Shown here: positions 15,865 to 22,433 of the stretch, one piece after another | Layout: each line of letters begins with the position of its first letter | Position numbering within the stretch: position 1 is the stretch's first letter | Assembly (NCBI GenBank): GCA_016793095.1 | Contig: JAEUJQ010000035.1 | Location: 62,001 to 126,000, forward strand | Direction of reading: 5' to 3' | Source of the DNA: Myxococcaceae bacterium | GTDB taxonomy: Bacteria > Myxococcota > Myxococcia > Myxococcales > Myxococcaceae | Length of the DNA stretch: 64,000 nucleotides | Notes under the pieces: model-generated | What the model was told of the DNA's origin: nothing | Database searches by the model: none | Seen by the model: the letters and a program-made list of their open reading frames with translations, nothing else | Position numbers and translations under genes: made by a program

Positions 15865-16310
15865 GGGGTCTCTCCTTCGGGAAGGTCCGGCCACATCACC
15901 TCGAAGAACACCTCATCGGCGGTGAGGTTGGGTTCGTTCTCGGCCCCGGCGGCGGAGGCGACCACGACGGGGCGCTCGACCACGCGCTCGACCACCACCT
16001 CGCGCACCGGCCGCGTCGTCCAGAAGCCGGCGGTGGCCAACAACGCGCCGGAGCCCGCGGCCGCCGCATACCCGACCCAGGAGCGCCGCGGGCGCGCGGA
16101 GCGCTGCCACTCCGACCAGGTGGACTCGACCAGCCCCTCGAGGGCCGCGCGCTCGGCGTCGGTCGGCGCGGGCAAGCTGGAACGCGCCACCACGAGGCCC
16201 AGGTCGCGCTCGAAGGCCTGACACGCGGGGCAGCCCGCGAGGTGGTCGTTGACGTCGGCGGTGCGCTGACCGCCGAGCAGCGCGAGCTCGTACTCTTCAC
16301 AGGTCTTCAT
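15861..16310 (-). CDS. transmembrane anti-sigma factor with zinc-finger-like domain
   Basis: A 149-residue protein. The N-terminus MKTCEEYEL...NDHLAGCPACQ gives Cys, then His-x3-Cys-x2-Cys, the zinc-associated anti-sigma (ZAS) pattern that binds and holds an ECF sigma factor in the cytoplasm. A single membrane helix follows at about residues 78-98 (WVGYAAAAGSGALLATAGFW). The periplasmic part is short and Val/Glu-rich, ending in an acidic tail. It overlaps both neighbours by ATGA, so translation of all three is coupled. The cognate sigma is the gene immediately upstream. Confidence 0.85.
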   Translation of the reverse strand: MKTCEEYELALLGGQRTADVNDHLAGCPACQAFERDLGLVVARSSLPAPTDAERAALEGLVESTWSEWQRSARPRRSWVGYAAAAGSGALLATAGFWTTRPVREVVVERVVERPVVVASAAGAENEPNLTADEVFFEVMWPDLPEGETP

Positions 16311-16933
16311 GGAGTGCCTCCGGGATCTCTGGCCAGCGCGCTGACCTCGTCGCGCAGCCGCTTCACGGCGTAGTGAAAGTGCGACTTCGCGTTGCCCTCG
16401 CTGATGCCGAGGGTCGAGGCGATCTCGGCGAAGGGCAGGCCCCCGTCGATGCGAAGCGTGAACACCTCGCGCTGGCGACGCGGCAACGCCGAGACTGCGC
16501 GGCGGGTGAGGGCCTCGGCCTGCGCGCGCTCGAGCTGCTCATGCGCCGACGGCGTCGGGCTCGACCTCTCATCGACGGCTCCGAGCGGAGCGCGCTTCCA
16601 CCGCCCCTCGTCGCGCACCTGATTCTTCCCGAGGTTGACGGCGATGCGCAGCAGCCACGCGCGGAAGGGCACGTCGCCCGGCGACGCGACGAGCCTGGGC
16701 ATCGTCCGGCGCGCGGCCTCGAAGGCCTGCACGAAGGCGCGTTGGGTCAGCTCGCGCGCTTCGTCTGGCGTTGACGCGTAGCGACGCACCAGGCGGAACA
16801 CCTGCTCCTGGTGCCGCCGAACGAGCTCGCCGAAGGCGTCCTTGTCACCGGTCAAGAACGCCGCACAGAGGGCGCCGTCGGTGCGCGGTTGCGCAGGCAC
16901 CAGACGAAGAGCGGGCGGAGACCGGAGTGTCAC
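16307..16933 (-). CDS. ECF-family RNA polymerase sigma factor
   Basis: A 208-residue sigma-70-type extracytoplasmic-function factor. Region 2 is visible as FGELVRRHQEQVFRLVRRYA...ARELTQRAFVQAFEA, followed by PFRAWLLRIAVNLGKNQVRD. Region 4 is LPRRQREVFTLRIDGGLPFAEIASTLGISEGNAKSHF, the helix-turn-helix that reads the -35 element. Start codon is GTG at 16933. The ATGA overlap with a ZAS-type anti-sigma gene makes this the regulated partner. A perfect dyad 19-38 bases upstream (16952-16971) is a candidate control site. Target genes are unknown; the operon itself, including the Spy-like protein, is the likeliest target because ECF operons commonly self-regulate. Confidence 0.92.
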   Translation of the reverse strand: MTLRSPPALRLVPAQPRTDGALCAAFLTGDKDAFGELVRRHQEQVFRLVRRYASTPDEARELTQRAFVQAFEAARRTMPRLVASPGDVPFRAWLLRIAVNLGKNQVRDEGRWKRAPLGAVDERSSPTPSAHEQLERAQAEALTRRAVSALPRRQREVFTLRIDGGLPFAEIASTLGISEGNAKSHFHYAVKRLRDEVSALARDPGGTP

Positions 16934-17740: not shown

Positions 17741-18418
17741 TCAGCGACGTTCACGCTCCGGGCGCACCAACCCGGCCATGGGAGCGCGGATGACGCTCAC
17801 CACAGCATCACTGAAGGCACGCGCAGCGGCATGAACGTCGGCTACTGAGCCGCCGAGGTAACCGCCCGCGAAGTTGGTCTCGGTCGGCGGTCCGAAGAAC
17901 TTGAGCAGCCTCACGTTGGCGGACTTGAGGGCGGCGTCGAGGCCGATCATCGCCTCGGTGGGAGGAGCGATGAGGTACGCGAGCGGGCTGCCCACCGGCA
18001 CGCCAGCCAGCGGCGCGAGGTAGCGACCGGTCTCCTCGATGACGTGGGGGAAGAAGGCGGGGGCGCTCGTACCCTCGAGGGTGACGAAGTGGATGCGGCT
18101 GGTGAGCGCCTGGCGCAACGCCCACAGCCCCTCCTTCACCTCGTCGGGGTTGGGGCCCGCGAGCGCGCCCAGGATCTCGCCCGAGAACGGCCCCGAGGCG
18201 TGAGCGCTGCCGGCGTAGAAGCTCTTCGCGTAGACGACGTCGACGTCGGCGAACTTGGTGGCGTGATCGAGCGCCGCGTAGAGCGAGTCGTCCTGATCGC
18301 AGGTGACGAGCCCCACCGAGACGTGACGTTCCGCGCAGCCCAGGGCCTTGCCGAGCGTGGGCTCGATCTGCTCGAGCAGCCGGCACGAGAGCAGCTTCGG
18401 TGGCTGCGCGACGAGCAT
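17741..18418 (-). CDS. eutL: ethanolamine-utilisation microcompartment shell protein EutL-like
   Basis: A 225-residue protein matching EutL over its whole length: VGLVTCDQDDSLYAALDHATK, VVYAKSFYAGSAH, GEILGALAGPNPDEVKEGL, APPTEAMIGLDAALKSANV, PPTETNFAGGYLGGS and AFSDAV. EutL is a trimeric tandem-BMC-domain shell protein with a gated pore and is close to this length in enterobacteria (about 219). The ATG overlaps the eutC stop (ATGA), so its synthesis is coupled to the lyase. No other shell, EutM/EutN-like, aldehyde dehydrogenase or EutJ/EutG gene is in the window. The assignment is firm; whether a complete microcompartment exists is not shown here. Confidence 0.9.
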   Translation of the reverse strand: MLVAQPPKLLSCRLLEQIEPTLGKALGCAERHVSVGLVTCDQDDSLYAALDHATKFADVDVVYAKSFYAGSAHASGPFSGEILGALAGPNPDEVKEGLWALRQALTSRIHFVTLEGTSAPAFFPHVIEETGRYLAPLAGVPVGSPLAYLIAPPTEAMIGLDAALKSANVRLLKFFGPPTETNFAGGYLGGSVADVHAAARAFSDAVVSVIRAPMAGLVRPERERR

Positions 18419-19290
18419 CAGTGGTTCACCACGTGCGGCCGGAAGGCCGGGTCGCCGCCGGTGAGCTTCACCCCGCCCCCGCCGGCCTTGAACGTGTCCT
18501 TCATGAGCGCGGCGCAGCGCGCGGCCGCCCGTTCTGGCGCGAACCCGAGGTCGCGCACGTTCGAGATGCAGTCCTTCTCGGAGTTGTCCTGGCCCAGCTT
18601 CGGGCCGTACGCGGTGTAGATGCTGAGCGAGTCGCCGGTGCCCAGGCCCGGGCGTTCGCCGACGATGATGACGGTGCTCTTCGCCTGGGTGAGCACGCCG
18701 ATCTCGTCCTGCACACCGATGCGCGCGTACTTCACGAAGAGGGGCTTGCCGACGCGGAAGCCGGCCCCCGCCAGGTGCTGCTGCAGCGCCTTCACCAGCG
18801 CAGGTCCGTTCGTGATGAGCGCATGGGCCGACAGGCCGTCGCCAGCGATCAGCTGCACATCGACCCCACGGTCGGCGTCCTTCTCGCAGCGCGCCTTCGA
18901 GGCGTCGTCGAGCCGGCGCCCCTGATCGGGGTGCAGGAAGAACTCGGCGTGATCCTTCGCGCGGGTGCGCAGCGGCACCCACCCCTGCTGCTCGGGCCAG
19001 CCGTCGGCGATCTCGGACTCGACGGCGTCCAGCGCGATGGCGTGATCGGCCCGCAGCCCGAGGTAGCTCTTCGTCAGGTACCGCGTCCCCGTGCGGCCGG
19101 TGACGATGCGCGAAGGCGTCGAGGCCCTGAGCTGCTCGATGGCCTCGGGGTTCCTGGGCGACGGCAACGGCCGGTGGTGCGGCCCCCTCCGGAGCGGCTC
19201 CTGCTCACGCACCACCGGCCTGTCTTCCTTCACGCCCACGACCTCGCGGACGACGTCGGCGACCAGGCGTCGAAGCTCGTCTTCGGTCAT
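18418..19290 (-). CDS. eutC: ethanolamine ammonia-lyase small subunit
   Basis: A 290-residue small (light) subunit of the adenosylcobalamin-dependent lyase that splits ethanolamine to acetaldehyde and ammonia. The family blocks are SRIVTGRTGTRYLTKSYL, DHAIALDAVE, GDGLSAHAL, RIGVQDEIG, and the cobalamin-contacting GERPGLGTGDSLSIY...YGP with CISNVRDLG near the C-terminus. ATG 19290 (MTEDELRRLV) overlaps the eutB stop, giving translational coupling. The N-terminal 60 residues (Pro/Arg-rich) are variable as in other EutC proteins. Acts with EutB and is followed by eutL. Confidence 0.94.
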   Translation of the reverse strand: MTEDELRRLVADVVREVVGVKEDRPVVREQEPLRRGPHHRPLPSPRNPEAIEQLRASTPSRIVTGRTGTRYLTKSYLGLRADHAIALDAVESEIADGWPEQQGWVPLRTRAKDHAEFFLHPDQGRRLDDASKARCEKDADRGVDVQLIAGDGLSAHALITNGPALVKALQQHLAGAGFRVGKPLFVKYARIGVQDEIGVLTQAKSTVIIVGERPGLGTGDSLSIYTAYGPKLGQDNSEKDCISNVRDLGFAPERAAARCAALMKDTFKAGGGGVKLTGGDPAFRPHVVNH

Positions 19291-20663
19291 CGCCCGAACT
19301 CCTTCTCGAAGACCGACGCGTCGCCAGCGCGCTCGGTCAGCCTGCCGTTGCGCCACAGCCCCATGCGCTCGAGCCACGCCTCGAACTCGGGCGCGGGCCG
19401 CAGGCCGTACAGCTCCTTGAGGGCCGCGTTGTTGTGGAAGCTGGTCGTCTGGTAGTTGAGCATCACGTCGTCGCCCATGGGGATGCCCATGAGGTAGTTC
19501 ACCCCGGCCGCTGCCAGCAGCATCTCCAGGTTCTCCTGGTCGTTCTGATCGGCGATGGCGTGGTTGGTGTAGCAGGCGTCGCAGCCCATCGAGATGCCGA
19601 TGAGCTTGCCCATGAAGTGATCTTCGAGCCCGGCCCGGGTGATCTCCTTCGCGTCGCGCAGGTACTCGGGGCCGATGAAGCCGACGACGCTGTTCACCAG
19701 GAACGGCGAGTACCGGCGGGCGAGGCCGTAGGCGCGCGCCTCCATCGTGACCTGGTCGGTGTCGTGGTGGGCGTTGGCTGACAGCGCGGTGCCCTGGCCC
19801 GTCTCGAAGTACATGACGTTGGGGCCCTGGGCGGTCCCCTCGCGTCGCGCGAGATCGTACGCCTCGTCGAGCACCGAGACCGAGACGCCGAAGTTCTGGT
19901 TGGCGCCCTGGCTGCCGGCGATCGACTGGAACATGAGGTCGAGCGGCGCTCCCCGGCGCACGGCCGCCATCTGAATGGTGATGTGCGAGAGCACGCAGTT
20001 CTGCGTCGGCACGCGGAACTTCCGCATCAGGTCCTTCACTGCGGTGAGGATGTCGATGGTGCCCTGCACGTCGCCGGTGGACGGGTTGACGCCGATGACC
20101 GCGTCACCGTTGCCGTAGGACAGGCCGTCTTTCACCGCCGCCAGGACGCCCTCGACGTCGTCGGTCGGGTGGTTCGGCTGCAGGCGTGACGAGATGCGGC
20201 CCTTCACGCCGATGGTGTTGTTGCACCGGGCGGTGACGCGCATCTTCTTGCCGGCGATCACCAGGTCCAGGTTGGACATCAGCTTCGCCACCGCCGCGAC
20301 CATCTCGGGCGTGAGGCCGGGAGAGACGCCGGTGATGTCTTCTCCCGTGGTGCGATCGTCGAGCAGCCACTCGCGGAACTCGCCGACCGTCCACCCCTGG
20401 ACGCGCTGGAGCACGTGCGGCGCGAGGCCGTCGATGACGACACGGGTCACCTCGTCCTGCTCGAAGGGCACCGAGGGCGCTTCGTACAGTTGTCTCAGGG
20501 TGACGTCGGCGAGCACGTGCTTCGCGGCGGCCATCTCACGCATCGAGCGCGCGGCGAGGCCAGCCTGACGGTCTCCCGAGCGGGGCTCGTTCGCGCGCCC
20601 CAGCACGTCCTTGAGGCTCGGGAAGGTGAAGTGCTCGCCGTGCAGGCGGGTGGAGAAGGCCAC
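19287..20663 (-). CDS. eutB: ethanolamine ammonia-lyase large subunit
   Basis: A 458-residue catalytic TIM-barrel subunit of ethanolamine ammonia-lyase. Conserved stretches include LKDVLGRANEPRSGD at the N-terminus, RCNNTIGVKGRISSRLQPNHP, GVNPSTGDVQG, IAGSQGANQNFGVSV, FETGQGTALSANAHHD and MGIPMGDDVMLNYQTTSFHN. These surround the substrate and cobalamin. The GTG at 20663 gives an N-terminus aligned with E. coli EutB; a TTG 12 codons further up is the alternative. It lies 42 bases after a lipoprotein gene on the same strand, too short a gap for a cobalamin riboswitch. No EutR-type regulator or ethanolamine permease is visible nearby. Confidence 0.94.
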   Translation of the reverse strand: MAFSTRLHGEHFTFPSLKDVLGRANEPRSGDRQAGLAARSMREMAAAKHVLADVTLRQLYEAPSVPFEQDEVTRVVIDGLAPHVLQRVQGWTVGEFREWLLDDRTTGEDITGVSPGLTPEMVAAVAKLMSNLDLVIAGKKMRVTARCNNTIGVKGRISSRLQPNHPTDDVEGVLAAVKDGLSYGNGDAVIGVNPSTGDVQGTIDILTAVKDLMRKFRVPTQNCVLSHITIQMAAVRRGAPLDLMFQSIAGSQGANQNFGVSVSVLDEAYDLARREGTAQGPNVMYFETGQGTALSANAHHDTDQVTMEARAYGLARRYSPFLVNSVVGFIGPEYLRDAKEITRAGLEDHFMGKLIGISMGCDACYTNHAIADQNDQENLEMLLAAAGVNYLMGIPMGDDVMLNYQTTSFHNNAALKELYGLRPAPEFEAWLERMGLWRNGRLTERAGDASVFEKEFGR

Positions 20664-20705: not shown

Positions 20706-22142
20706 TCAGCGACACCGATTGGGCATCACGAAAGTGCTGCCGCCTCCGACACCGACGACGTCGAGCAGGCCATCGCCGTCCACGTCCGCCAGCGTGACCG
20801 CCGCGGCCGGGCCTGGCGACGGCGCCAACTGGCTGGGCGGGCTCACACCGCCGTCAGAGAGCACCCGCAGGAGGAACACTCCGCCGTCCGCGAGGCTGCT
20901 GGAGAGCACGAGCTCGGGCCGGCCGTCGAGGTCGAGGTCCGCGAGCGCTGGCGGGGTGTCGCTCGCGAGCGCGCCGACGGTCGCGAGCGGCGCGAACCGG
21001 CCCACCGAGGCCTGCTGAAAGAGCACGACGGTGGCGTCCTGAGTCGTGACCACGAGGTCGCGCAGGCCGTCGCCGTCGAGGTCGCCGATGGTGCACGCCG
21101 TTGGTCGGCCTGCGATCGGGAGCTGCTCCGCGATGGTGAGCCTCGCCGCGCCGTCGTTGCGGAACACGGTGGCGACGCCCGGCGACAAGCCCGAGAGCGC
21201 GACGACGTCGTGCCGCCCGACGCCCCGGACATCGCCTGTGCAGTTGGCGAAGACGTTCAGGCCCGCGTCCGTCGTCCATGGGGTCGGCAACGAGTAGCTG
21301 CCGTTCTGGTGCTTGAGGATCAACACCTCTGACGCCTGGTTCGAGACGACGAGCTCGTCGCCCGGCGTGCCGTCCAGCGGCGCCGCGGAGATGGCCCAGA
21401 CGTTCGGCACCTGGTACCGGTTCGAGAGGGTGAAGCGCCCGGTCTGGTCGTTGCGTGCGACGACCAGCTGCGCGGCGAAGAAGGCGCCGACGACGAGGTC
21501 GTCGAAGCCGTCGAGGTCCACGTCGGTGACGGCGAGGGCCGCGGGCCACGAGCTCGCCGAAAAGCGCGTCAGCACCGCGGGCCGGAGCCCGGTGGGCGAG
21601 TTGAGCACCACCCCGAGCTCGTCCTGGAACGGGTTCGTCCACGCGAAGTCTGGCCGACCATCGCGGTCGAAGTCGCCAGCGAGGAGGAAGGGTCCTCCAC
21701 CAGCCTGGGTGCGCACGGGGCCGAAGGAGAGCACGCAGCCGCCATCTCGCGCGCCGCCGCCGTCGGGCCGCGAGCCTGCATCGGGAGTGGAGGCGTCGGG
21801 GGTCGCCAGCCCTGCGTCCTGTCCTGCGTCCTGTCCTGCGTCCTGTCCCGCGTCGCCGATGCCCGCGTCGCCGATGCCCGCGTCGGTGCGGCCGGCGTCT
21901 TCTCGCCCGCTGTCAACCAGCGAGCTCGCGGGCGTGCAGCGGCCGATCGAGCACTGCTCGGTGAACGCGCACGCCGAGCACGCGGCGCCTCCGAGCCCGC
22001 AGCTCGCCGAGTCCGTGCCTTGAAGGCAGCCGCCAGTGCGGGAGCAGCAACCGGAGCAGGTCGAGGGCCCGCACGGCAGGGTCGTCGGCCCGCAGGCGCA
22101 GAGGGTGACGAGGACAACGAAGCCGAAGGGTCGCATCACCAT
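20706..22142 (-). CDS. FG-GAP/VCBS repeat lipoprotein
   Basis: A 478-residue envelope protein. The N-terminus (MVMRPFGFVVLVTLCACG) is a lipoprotein signal, followed by a Cys-rich stretch (CGPSTCSGCCSRTGGC...) that probably forms disulfides. A low-complexity Asp-Ala-Gly linker comes next, including three consecutive GQDA-type repeats. The rest is a seven-bladed-type beta-propeller with Ca-binding FG-GAP/VCBS motifs such as DFDRDGRPDF, DVDLDGFDDLVVG, DLDGDGLRDLVV, DLDLDGRPELVL and DVDGDGLLDVVG. Probably surface-exposed; ligand unknown. It is the gene just upstream of eutB on the same strand but has no evident link to ethanolamine. Confidence 0.82.
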   Translation of the reverse strand: MVMRPFGFVVLVTLCACGPTTLPCGPSTCSGCCSRTGGCLQGTDSASCGLGGAACSACAFTEQCSIGRCTPASSLVDSGREDAGRTDAGIGDAGIGDAGQDAGQDAGQDAGLATPDASTPDAGSRPDGGGARDGGCVLSFGPVRTQAGGGPFLLAGDFDRDGRPDFAWTNPFQDELGVVLNSPTGLRPAVLTRFSASSWPAALAVTDVDLDGFDDLVVGAFFAAQLVVARNDQTGRFTLSNRYQVPNVWAISAAPLDGTPGDELVVSNQASEVLILKHQNGSYSLPTPWTTDAGLNVFANCTGDVRGVGRHDVVALSGLSPGVATVFRNDGAARLTIAEQLPIAGRPTACTIGDLDGDGLRDLVVTTQDATVVLFQQASVGRFAPLATVGALASDTPPALADLDLDGRPELVLSSSLADGGVFLLRVLSDGGVSPPSQLAPSPGPAAAVTLADVDGDGLLDVVGVGGGSTFVMPNRCR

Positions 22143-22433
22143 GGAGGACACCGCAGCCCCGGCGATGATGCACCAACCGATGAAGCCGAGACGGATCGTG
22201 GGGGTTCCGGAGACGTGTTACCTCGAACGCATGCCGCTGACCGTGACTGCTGAGGACTCGACTACGTGCCCGCCGACGTCCTGTGCTGGTGTTTGCTGGA
22301 ACGCCGGAGTGCCTCGAAGCACGGCGCCAGCGTGGCGTCGGTGGACCCACAGGGCCGCACACCGTCAGTGGCCAGCGGCGTGCAGCGCTGGCTCCGCACT
22401 CAGTCATGGCGACTGAGGAAACGAGGGCCTTGA
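22143..22433. other. divergent intergenic region, 291 bp
   Basis: This gap separates the FG-GAP lipoprotein gene and the rightward hypothetical gene at 22434. ORFs cross it on both strands but show no domain, start signal or coding bias I can trust. It should hold the promoters of both neighbours; no convincing -10/-35 pair or sigma-54 motif was found. Confidence 0.4.

What the first reader, a model, noticed from the sequence alone, without database searches (positions are those of the whole stretch)
17741..20663. eutB-eutC-eutL without other microcompartment genes
The lyase subunits are translationally coupled to EutL, a tandem-domain shell protein. The window shows no hexameric or pentameric shell, no aldehyde dehydrogenase and no regulator. 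EutL alone cannot form a closed shell, so it might act as a pore or scaffold for the lyase, or the missing shell genes lie elsewhere.
Basis: partly seen in the sequence, partly recalled or inferred. Interest (0 to 1): 0.5.

Follow-up and report, generated by a model that had tools for sequence, protein, structure and literature searches.

The report
Ethanolamine add-on for myxobacterial microcompartment
Three overlapping genes for breaking down ethanolamine sit apart from, but appear to belong to, a protein-shelled compartment whose other shell genes lie elsewhere in the same myxobacterial genome, an arrangement that has already been described.

Summary
The idea that EutL stands alone does not hold. 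The same genome encodes BMC-T, BMC-H, BMC-P, acylating aldehyde dehydrogenase and a second BMC-T at the end of contig C71, and two BMC-P genes plus a class II aldolase on C2. The H, P and one T protein are closest to the Haliangium ochraceum (HO) shell. Of 195 genomes of the phylum, 33 of 34 with this EutL also have BMC-P. In a Bdellovibrionales assembly eutBCL lies directly in front of a shell and aldehyde dehydrogenase. Best reading: a satellite 'EUT module' letting an HO-type compartment use ethanolamine, published in 2021 (PMC8217296). Extra points: no EutA detected in 195 genomes, no PduL in this genus, one genome with eutBCL and no shell detected. Low interest.

The parts
19287..20663 (-). 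eutB, ethanolamine ammonia-lyase large subunit (458 aa, GTG start)
   Evidence: PF06751 678 bits; NF011649 658 bits, cut-off 554
18418..19290 (-). eutC, ethanolamine ammonia-lyase small subunit (290 aa); overlaps eutB by 4 nt (ATGA)
   Evidence: PF05985 225 bits; junction read
19234..19290 (-). predicted encapsulation peptide: EutC residues 1-19, amphipathic helix, followed by a variable linker
   Evidence: Best hydrophobic moment 0.70. By eye, with the labels known, a like helix is seen in 26 of 26 EutC from EutL genomes and 0 of 5 from genomes without EutL; a strict pattern matched 14 of those 26 and 0 of 5. Identity within the genus 0.82 for residues 1-19, 0.68 for the linker, 0.89 for the core
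17741..18418 (-). eutL, BMC-T shell protein with two BMC domains (225 aa); TGATG overlap with eutC
   Evidence: PF00936 two stretches; best solved relatives 3u27 and 4edi, E 2.6e-57 and 5.3e-57

Best explanation
The three genes form a satellite EUT module of an HO-type bacterial microcompartment whose shell is encoded on other contigs. EutL trimers are inserted into the HO-type shell as a pore for ethanolamine. EutBC is drawn into the lumen by the N-terminal helix of EutC and cleaves ethanolamine to acetaldehyde and ammonia. The shell's own acylating aldehyde dehydrogenase (C71) turns acetaldehyde into acetyl-CoA. Shown: the gene order and overlaps, the shell set in the same genome, the co-occurrence across the phylum, and a relative in which both parts lie side by side. 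Inferred: assembly of EutL into this shell, encapsulation of EutBC, the pathway and the regulation.
For: Shell in the same genome: CcmP-like BMC-T (cut at the contig end), BMC-H, BMC-P, AldDh and a second BMC-T on C71, and two BMC-P plus a PF00596 aldolase on C2. BMC-H (5djb, HO-5815), BMC-P (5v74) and the CcmP-like BMC-T (5v74, HO-5816) have the HO shell as best solved match apart from an engineered fusion in the first row for BMC-H (the CcmP-like query is the complete copy of a genus relative, L149; that 5v74 is the H. ochraceum shell is recalled, the HO names are in the tables). Co-occurrence: EutL in 34 of 195 genomes, 33 of them with BMC-P, against 40 of the 161 without EutL (Fisher p 7e-16, kinship not corrected). 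Of 40 EutL genomes that I picked from the 80 loci, 39 have BMC-P; 7 of the 40 are Bacillota, most or all with shell genes of their own beside eutL, and at least one repeats a genome already counted. Adjacency: L186 runs eutB-eutC-eutL-BMC-H-BMC-P-AldDh-RnfC/PduS-like-BMC-T-BMC-T on one strand; in L185 eutL, an RpiB-DeoC protein and shell genes share a contig. EutC helix. S. enterica EutC residues 1-19 target cargo to Eut shells (PMC3299773, passages). Published description of EUT modules among HO satellites (PMC8217296, passages).
Against: No experiment. EutA was not found although the published module is described with EutA/B/C. PduL phosphotransacylase was not found in any of the 7 genomes of the genus and in only 10 of 34 EutL genomes, two of those weakly, so recycling of CoA inside the shell is unexplained. 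G011 (92% complete, 170 contigs) has eutBCL but no BMC-P, no HO-type AldDh and only one weak BMC hit, probably EutL itself. The helix judgement was by eye; the strict pattern matched 14 of 26, and the hydrophobic moment is not specific, since internal stretches of the two fused EutBC proteins reach 0.51 and 0.59. In the side-by-side locus L186 EutC does not show the helix. In the Salmonella work EutS was needed for targeting by the EutC peptide (PMC3299773), and no EutS was identified here, where the genome has a single BMC-H gene. The second BMC-T of C71 matches PduT-type structures slightly better (120.9 bits) than 5dih (109.8 bits), which I recall to be the HO protein.
Confidence: 0.84

Rival explanations
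1. EutL works without a shell, as a scaffold or regulator of the lyase in the cytoplasm.
For: G011 carries eutBCL with no BMC-P and no HO-type AldDh detected and a single weak BMC hit. Apart from eutB and eutC, no neighbour group was found in more than 9 of 33 compared loci.
Against: 33 of 34 EutL genomes of the phylum have BMC-P. In the 38 genomes with standalone EutB, the 6 without EutL have a more distant EutB (53-58% identity to the window's, against 71% or more in the rest) and, in the 5 where EutC was found, no helix. This gap is not general: in named assemblies some EutL-linked EutB of Myxococcota or proteobacterial bins are only 56-61% identical (L209, L214, L215, L216, L221). G011 is a 170-contig assembly at 92% completeness.
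Confidence: 0.07
2. A relic: the eut genes are remnants of a lost classical eut operon and no longer act with a shell.
For: Pfam scans of 15 neighbouring ORFs within about 14 kb showed no EutA, EutT or transporter; EutA and PduL were not found in the genome.
Against: All three frames are intact, and EutL is conserved over the phylum (22 sequences, mean column identity 70%; EutB and EutC). The module recurs with the same shell in many genera.
Confidence: 0.05
3. The module serves a different, undetected classical Eut compartment in this genome.
For: 8.8 Mb assembly in 93 contigs, 98.65% complete, so a small gap is possible.
Against: Whole-genome PF00936 and PF03319 searches show one shell set only, and genomes of the same genus show similar counts.
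Confidence: 0.03

Closest known systems
EUT module satellite loci of HO, SPU3 and SPU6 BMCs (Sutter et al. 2021, PMC8217296; passages read)
   Same: [quoted passage not shown] same proposed role of adding ethanolamine as a substrate
   Different: EutA is part of the published description; none was detected here or in 195 genomes of the phylum at E 1e-15. Supplementary Fig. 4 was not available to me.
[quoted passage not shown] PMC8217296)
   Same: BMC-H, three BMC-P, CcmP-like BMC-T, second BMC-T, AldDh, and a satellite with two BMC-P and an aldolase
   Different: Second BMC-T slightly closer to PduT structures than to 5dih; the aldolase here is PF00596, and I do not know the family of the published one
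Classical Eut operons (EUT1, EUT2)
   Same: EutB, EutC, EutL families; EutC N-terminal targeting helix (PMC3299773)
   Different: No EutA detected; no BMC-H or BMC-P gene beside it; aldehyde dehydrogenase on another contig

Membership tests
EUT module satellite (PMC8217296) | EutB and EutC signature enzyme | tested here: met
EUT module satellite (PMC8217296) | EutL-type BMC-Tsp | tested here: met
   below TIGR04502's own cut-off (270.6 of 300 bits), above NF011934's
EUT module satellite (PMC8217296) | EutA reactivating factor | tested here: not met
   own genome: one 33-bit local hit in an ORF that reads as FtsA (named by eye, no family scan); 0 of 195 genomes at E 1e-15. Whether every published module has EutA could not be checked, so this is a difference in content, not a clear exclusion.
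EUT module satellite (PMC8217296) | Distal from a main locus that has BMC-H and BMC-P | tested here: met
   window on C47, main locus on C71
HO BMC type I | BMC-P triplet | tested here: met
   3 PF03319 matches
HO BMC type I | Satellite with two BMC-P and an aldolase | tested here: met
   C2:70123-70637 plus PF00596 gene behind it
HO BMC type I | CsoS1D- or CcmP-like BMC-Tdp | tested here: met
   CcmP model 196 bits, below its cut-off of 340, on a partial protein; HO-5816 best match for the full-length relative
HO BMC type I | BMC-type acylating AldDh | tested here: met
   NF011927 653.8 bits, cut-off 403
Classical Eut operon | Eut shell genes in the same operon | tested here: not met
Functional Eut metabolosome | EutBC inside the shell; growth on ethanolamine | not testable with these tools
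   needs experiment

The most novel reading that the evidence does not exclude
eutBCL is a mobile three-gene plug-in, without EutA, that converts HO-type compartments to ethanolamine use across Myxococcota and Bdellovibrionota, with the lyase reactivated by an unknown factor; in a few lineages such as G011, EutL serves the lyase without any shell.
Probability: 0.08. Interest if true: 0.5.

Novelty: new member of a known kind. Interest (0 to 1): 0.18.

Why it matters
The HO shell is a widely used engineering chassis whose natural function was called enigmatic in 2021 (PMC8217296). Genomes like this one give a simple test of one natural substrate, and a natural example of a compartment that takes on a new pathway through one pore protein and one tagged enzyme. 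The idea itself is already in print.

Tried and rejected
EutL alone as a pore or scaffold: rejected for this genome once the shell set on C71 and C2 was found. EutA as a hidden partner: the single weak hit lies in an ORF that reads as FtsA. Known RNA element such as a B12 riboswitch: none at gathering score. Sigma-70-like promoter scan: 0 found; such scans say little in a GC-rich genome. Upstream FG-GAP gene (20706-22151) as an operon partner: not among the neighbour groups shared by three or more of 33 loci. ECF sigma gene (16307-16933) as a regulator: its group is found in 8 of 33 loci, close relatives with the same surroundings, where it stays a few genes from eutL; this neither supports nor excludes a role. 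PADLOC scan of two neighbours: nothing. EutL without shell in G208: its contig carries a BMC-T beside eutL, so a gap is likelier.

Errors and choices. Searches used the antisense translation of the window's three eut genes by mistake; one search repeats them correctly and replaces their numbers. In one search the BMC-P3 reference was out of frame and gave no family; one search shows that gene. One search used lists copied. Its 38 'standalone' EutB genomes were chosen by bit score and include two fragments (G054, G156); fused 440-470-bit EutBC proteins and genomes G173 and G179 were left out. The EutC helix count leaves out the two fused proteins (L111, L112). One search compared the window with 32 of the 80 loci, using a simple gene caller of my own; one search used 40 of the 80.

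Literature: passages of PMC8217296, PMC4207490, PMC3299773, PMC11157265 and PMC13185154; all other papers in search listings only. Searches for descriptions of such a module in myxobacteria gave PMC8217296 as the only one I judged relevant from the listings; this covers only the held open library.

Full report
What is there. Three genes on the minus strand, eutB (19287-20663), eutC (18418-19290) and eutL (17741-18418), overlap by 4 nt (ATGA) and 1 nt (TGATG). Pfam and NCBIfam identify all three. EutL is 225 aa with two BMC stretches; its best solved relatives are 3u27 and 4edi, E 2.6e-57 and 5.3e-57. In 22 aligned EutL proteins of the phylum D41, D43, D44, E81 and F111 are invariant. I recall that ethanolamine binds near the matching acidic residues of clostridial EutL, but the paper is not held and I did not verify it.

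The rest of the compartment. The genome (8.81 Mb, 93 contigs, 98.65% complete) has six PF00936 matches: two are EutL itself and four lie at the end of contig C71. PF03319 gives one BMC-P on C71 and two on C2. On C71 the order is CcmP-like BMC-T (cut by the contig end), BMC-H, BMC-P, a 69-aa ORF without a Pfam match, acylating aldehyde dehydrogenase with a helix-like N terminus (by eye), and a second BMC-T. Of four stretches taken from the same genus, two (L149, L150) show the run from CcmP-like BMC-T to the second BMC-T in this order; in L148 the contig ends at BMC-H, and in L151 my gene caller named no CcmP-like gene. On C2 the two BMC-P genes are followed by a class II aldolase gene, as published for satellites of type I HO BMCs (PMC8217296, passages). 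BMC-H, BMC-P and the CcmP-like BMC-T are closest to HO shell proteins among solved structures, an engineered fusion in the first row for BMC-H apart. The second BMC-T matches PduT-type entries slightly better (120.9 bits) than 5dih (109.8 bits), which I recall as the HO protein.

Link between the two parts. In the 195 genomes that the tool searched for the phylum, EutL was found in 34 and BMC-P in 73. 33 of 34 EutL genomes have BMC-P, and 40 of 73 BMC-P genomes have no EutL, so the module is an optional extra of the shell (Fisher p 7e-16 without correction for kinship). The HO-type aldehyde dehydrogenase was found at E 1e-60 in 70 of 195, none of them without BMC-P, and in 32 of 34 EutL genomes; G011 and the fragmented G156 lack it. 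G011 lacks both, and its single weak BMC hit is probably EutL. Of 40 EutL genomes picked from the 80 loci of titled assemblies, 39 have BMC-P; 7 of the 40 are Bacillota, and at least one (G225) repeats a genome already counted, by its contig coordinates. The one miss, G208, has a BMC-T gene beside eutL on its 4.4-kb contig, so its miss is probably a gap. In the Bdellovibrionales assembly of locus L186, eutB, eutC and eutL run straight into BMC-H, BMC-P, aldehyde dehydrogenase, an RnfC/PduS-like protein and two BMC-T genes, all on one strand, with an amino-acid-permease-family gene on the other strand. In L185 eutL precedes an RpiB-DeoC protein and a shell set.

Neighbours. In 33 loci (the window and 32 of 80) the eutC, eutL and eutB groups occur in 26, 23 and 22; the next group occurs in 9. 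An ECF sigma gene and a TetR-family gene lie in the window; no link to eut is shown.

Targeting. EutC of the window begins MTEDELRRLVADVVREVVG, hydrophobic moment 0.70. By eye, with the labels known, a comparable helix is seen in 26 of 26 EutC proteins from EutL genomes and in 0 of 5 from genomes without EutL. The moment was 0.37-0.90 in 24 of the 26; the other two needed the upstream frame. A strict pattern matched 14 of 26 and 0 of 5. The moment alone is not specific: internal stretches of two fused EutBC proteins reach 0.51 and 0.59. Within the genus the helix is better conserved than the linker behind it (0.82 against 0.68; core 0.89). The first 19 residues of Salmonella EutC direct cargo into Eut shells, but that needed EutS (PMC3299773, passages), and no EutS was identified here. 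EutC of L186 does not show such a helix.

Two kinds of EutB. Of 38 genomes with standalone EutB, 32 have EutL; the 6 others have EutB 53-58% identical to the window's, against 71% or more. This gap is not general: L209, L214, L215, L216 and L221 have eutL beside an EutB of 56-61% identity, and their EutL group with the Bacillota rows in the tree.

Gaps. EutA was not detected in this genome or in any of 195 at E 1e-15. PduL was not found in any of the 7 genomes of the genus; it was found in 38 of 195 overall, 10 of them with EutL, two of these weakly. How the lyase is reactivated and CoA recycled is open. The EutL tree of 81 rows puts the window in a set of five with Archangiaceae, Myxococcaceae and Myxococcales assemblies (100/99 support), and Bdellovibrionota rows fall in several places among Myxococcota, so transfer between phyla is possible but not proven.

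Verdict. A satellite EUT module of an HO-type microcompartment, a kind already described in 2021.

Noticed in passing
L103 (G011:C127:36000-49691): eutB-eutC-eutL with no BMC-P, no HO-type aldehyde dehydrogenase and a single weak BMC hit in a 92% complete assembly: of 34 EutL genomes of the phylum the only one without a detected shell.
   Followed up: partly
L186:7640-15379: Single-strand run of eutBCL, BMC-H, BMC-P, aldehyde dehydrogenase, RnfC/PduS-like protein and two BMC-T genes in a Bdellovibrionales assembly, with an amino-acid-permease-family gene beside it.
   Followed up: partly
L185:2-7300: eutL next to an RpiB-DeoC fusion protein and an HO/SPU-like shell set, a candidate mixed SPU and EUT locus.
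   Followed up: partly
L162:12675-14210: Hsp70-family protein (511 aa) whose group lies near eutCL in four loci of close relatives. EutA is of the Hsp70/actin fold (recalled), so it could be looked at as a reactivase; it is not at the window's locus.
   Followed up: no
L081, L086, L088, L090 and L115, L117: In several genomes of genus g4 eutB lies apart from eutC-eutL (about 19 kb away on the same contig in G069), whereas G070 of the same genus has them together.
   Followed up: partly
L183, L193, L196, L203: A shared gene group (c15) follows eutL in most of these four Myxococcales loci; not identified.
   Followed up: no
G192, G196, G220, G223: Seven or eight BMC-P matches in one genome, against three in most relatives; more than one compartment type may be present.
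   Followed up: no
window 20706-22151, minus strand: FG-GAP repeat protein gene ending about 43 bases upstream of eutB; not in a shared neighbour group.
   Followed up: partly
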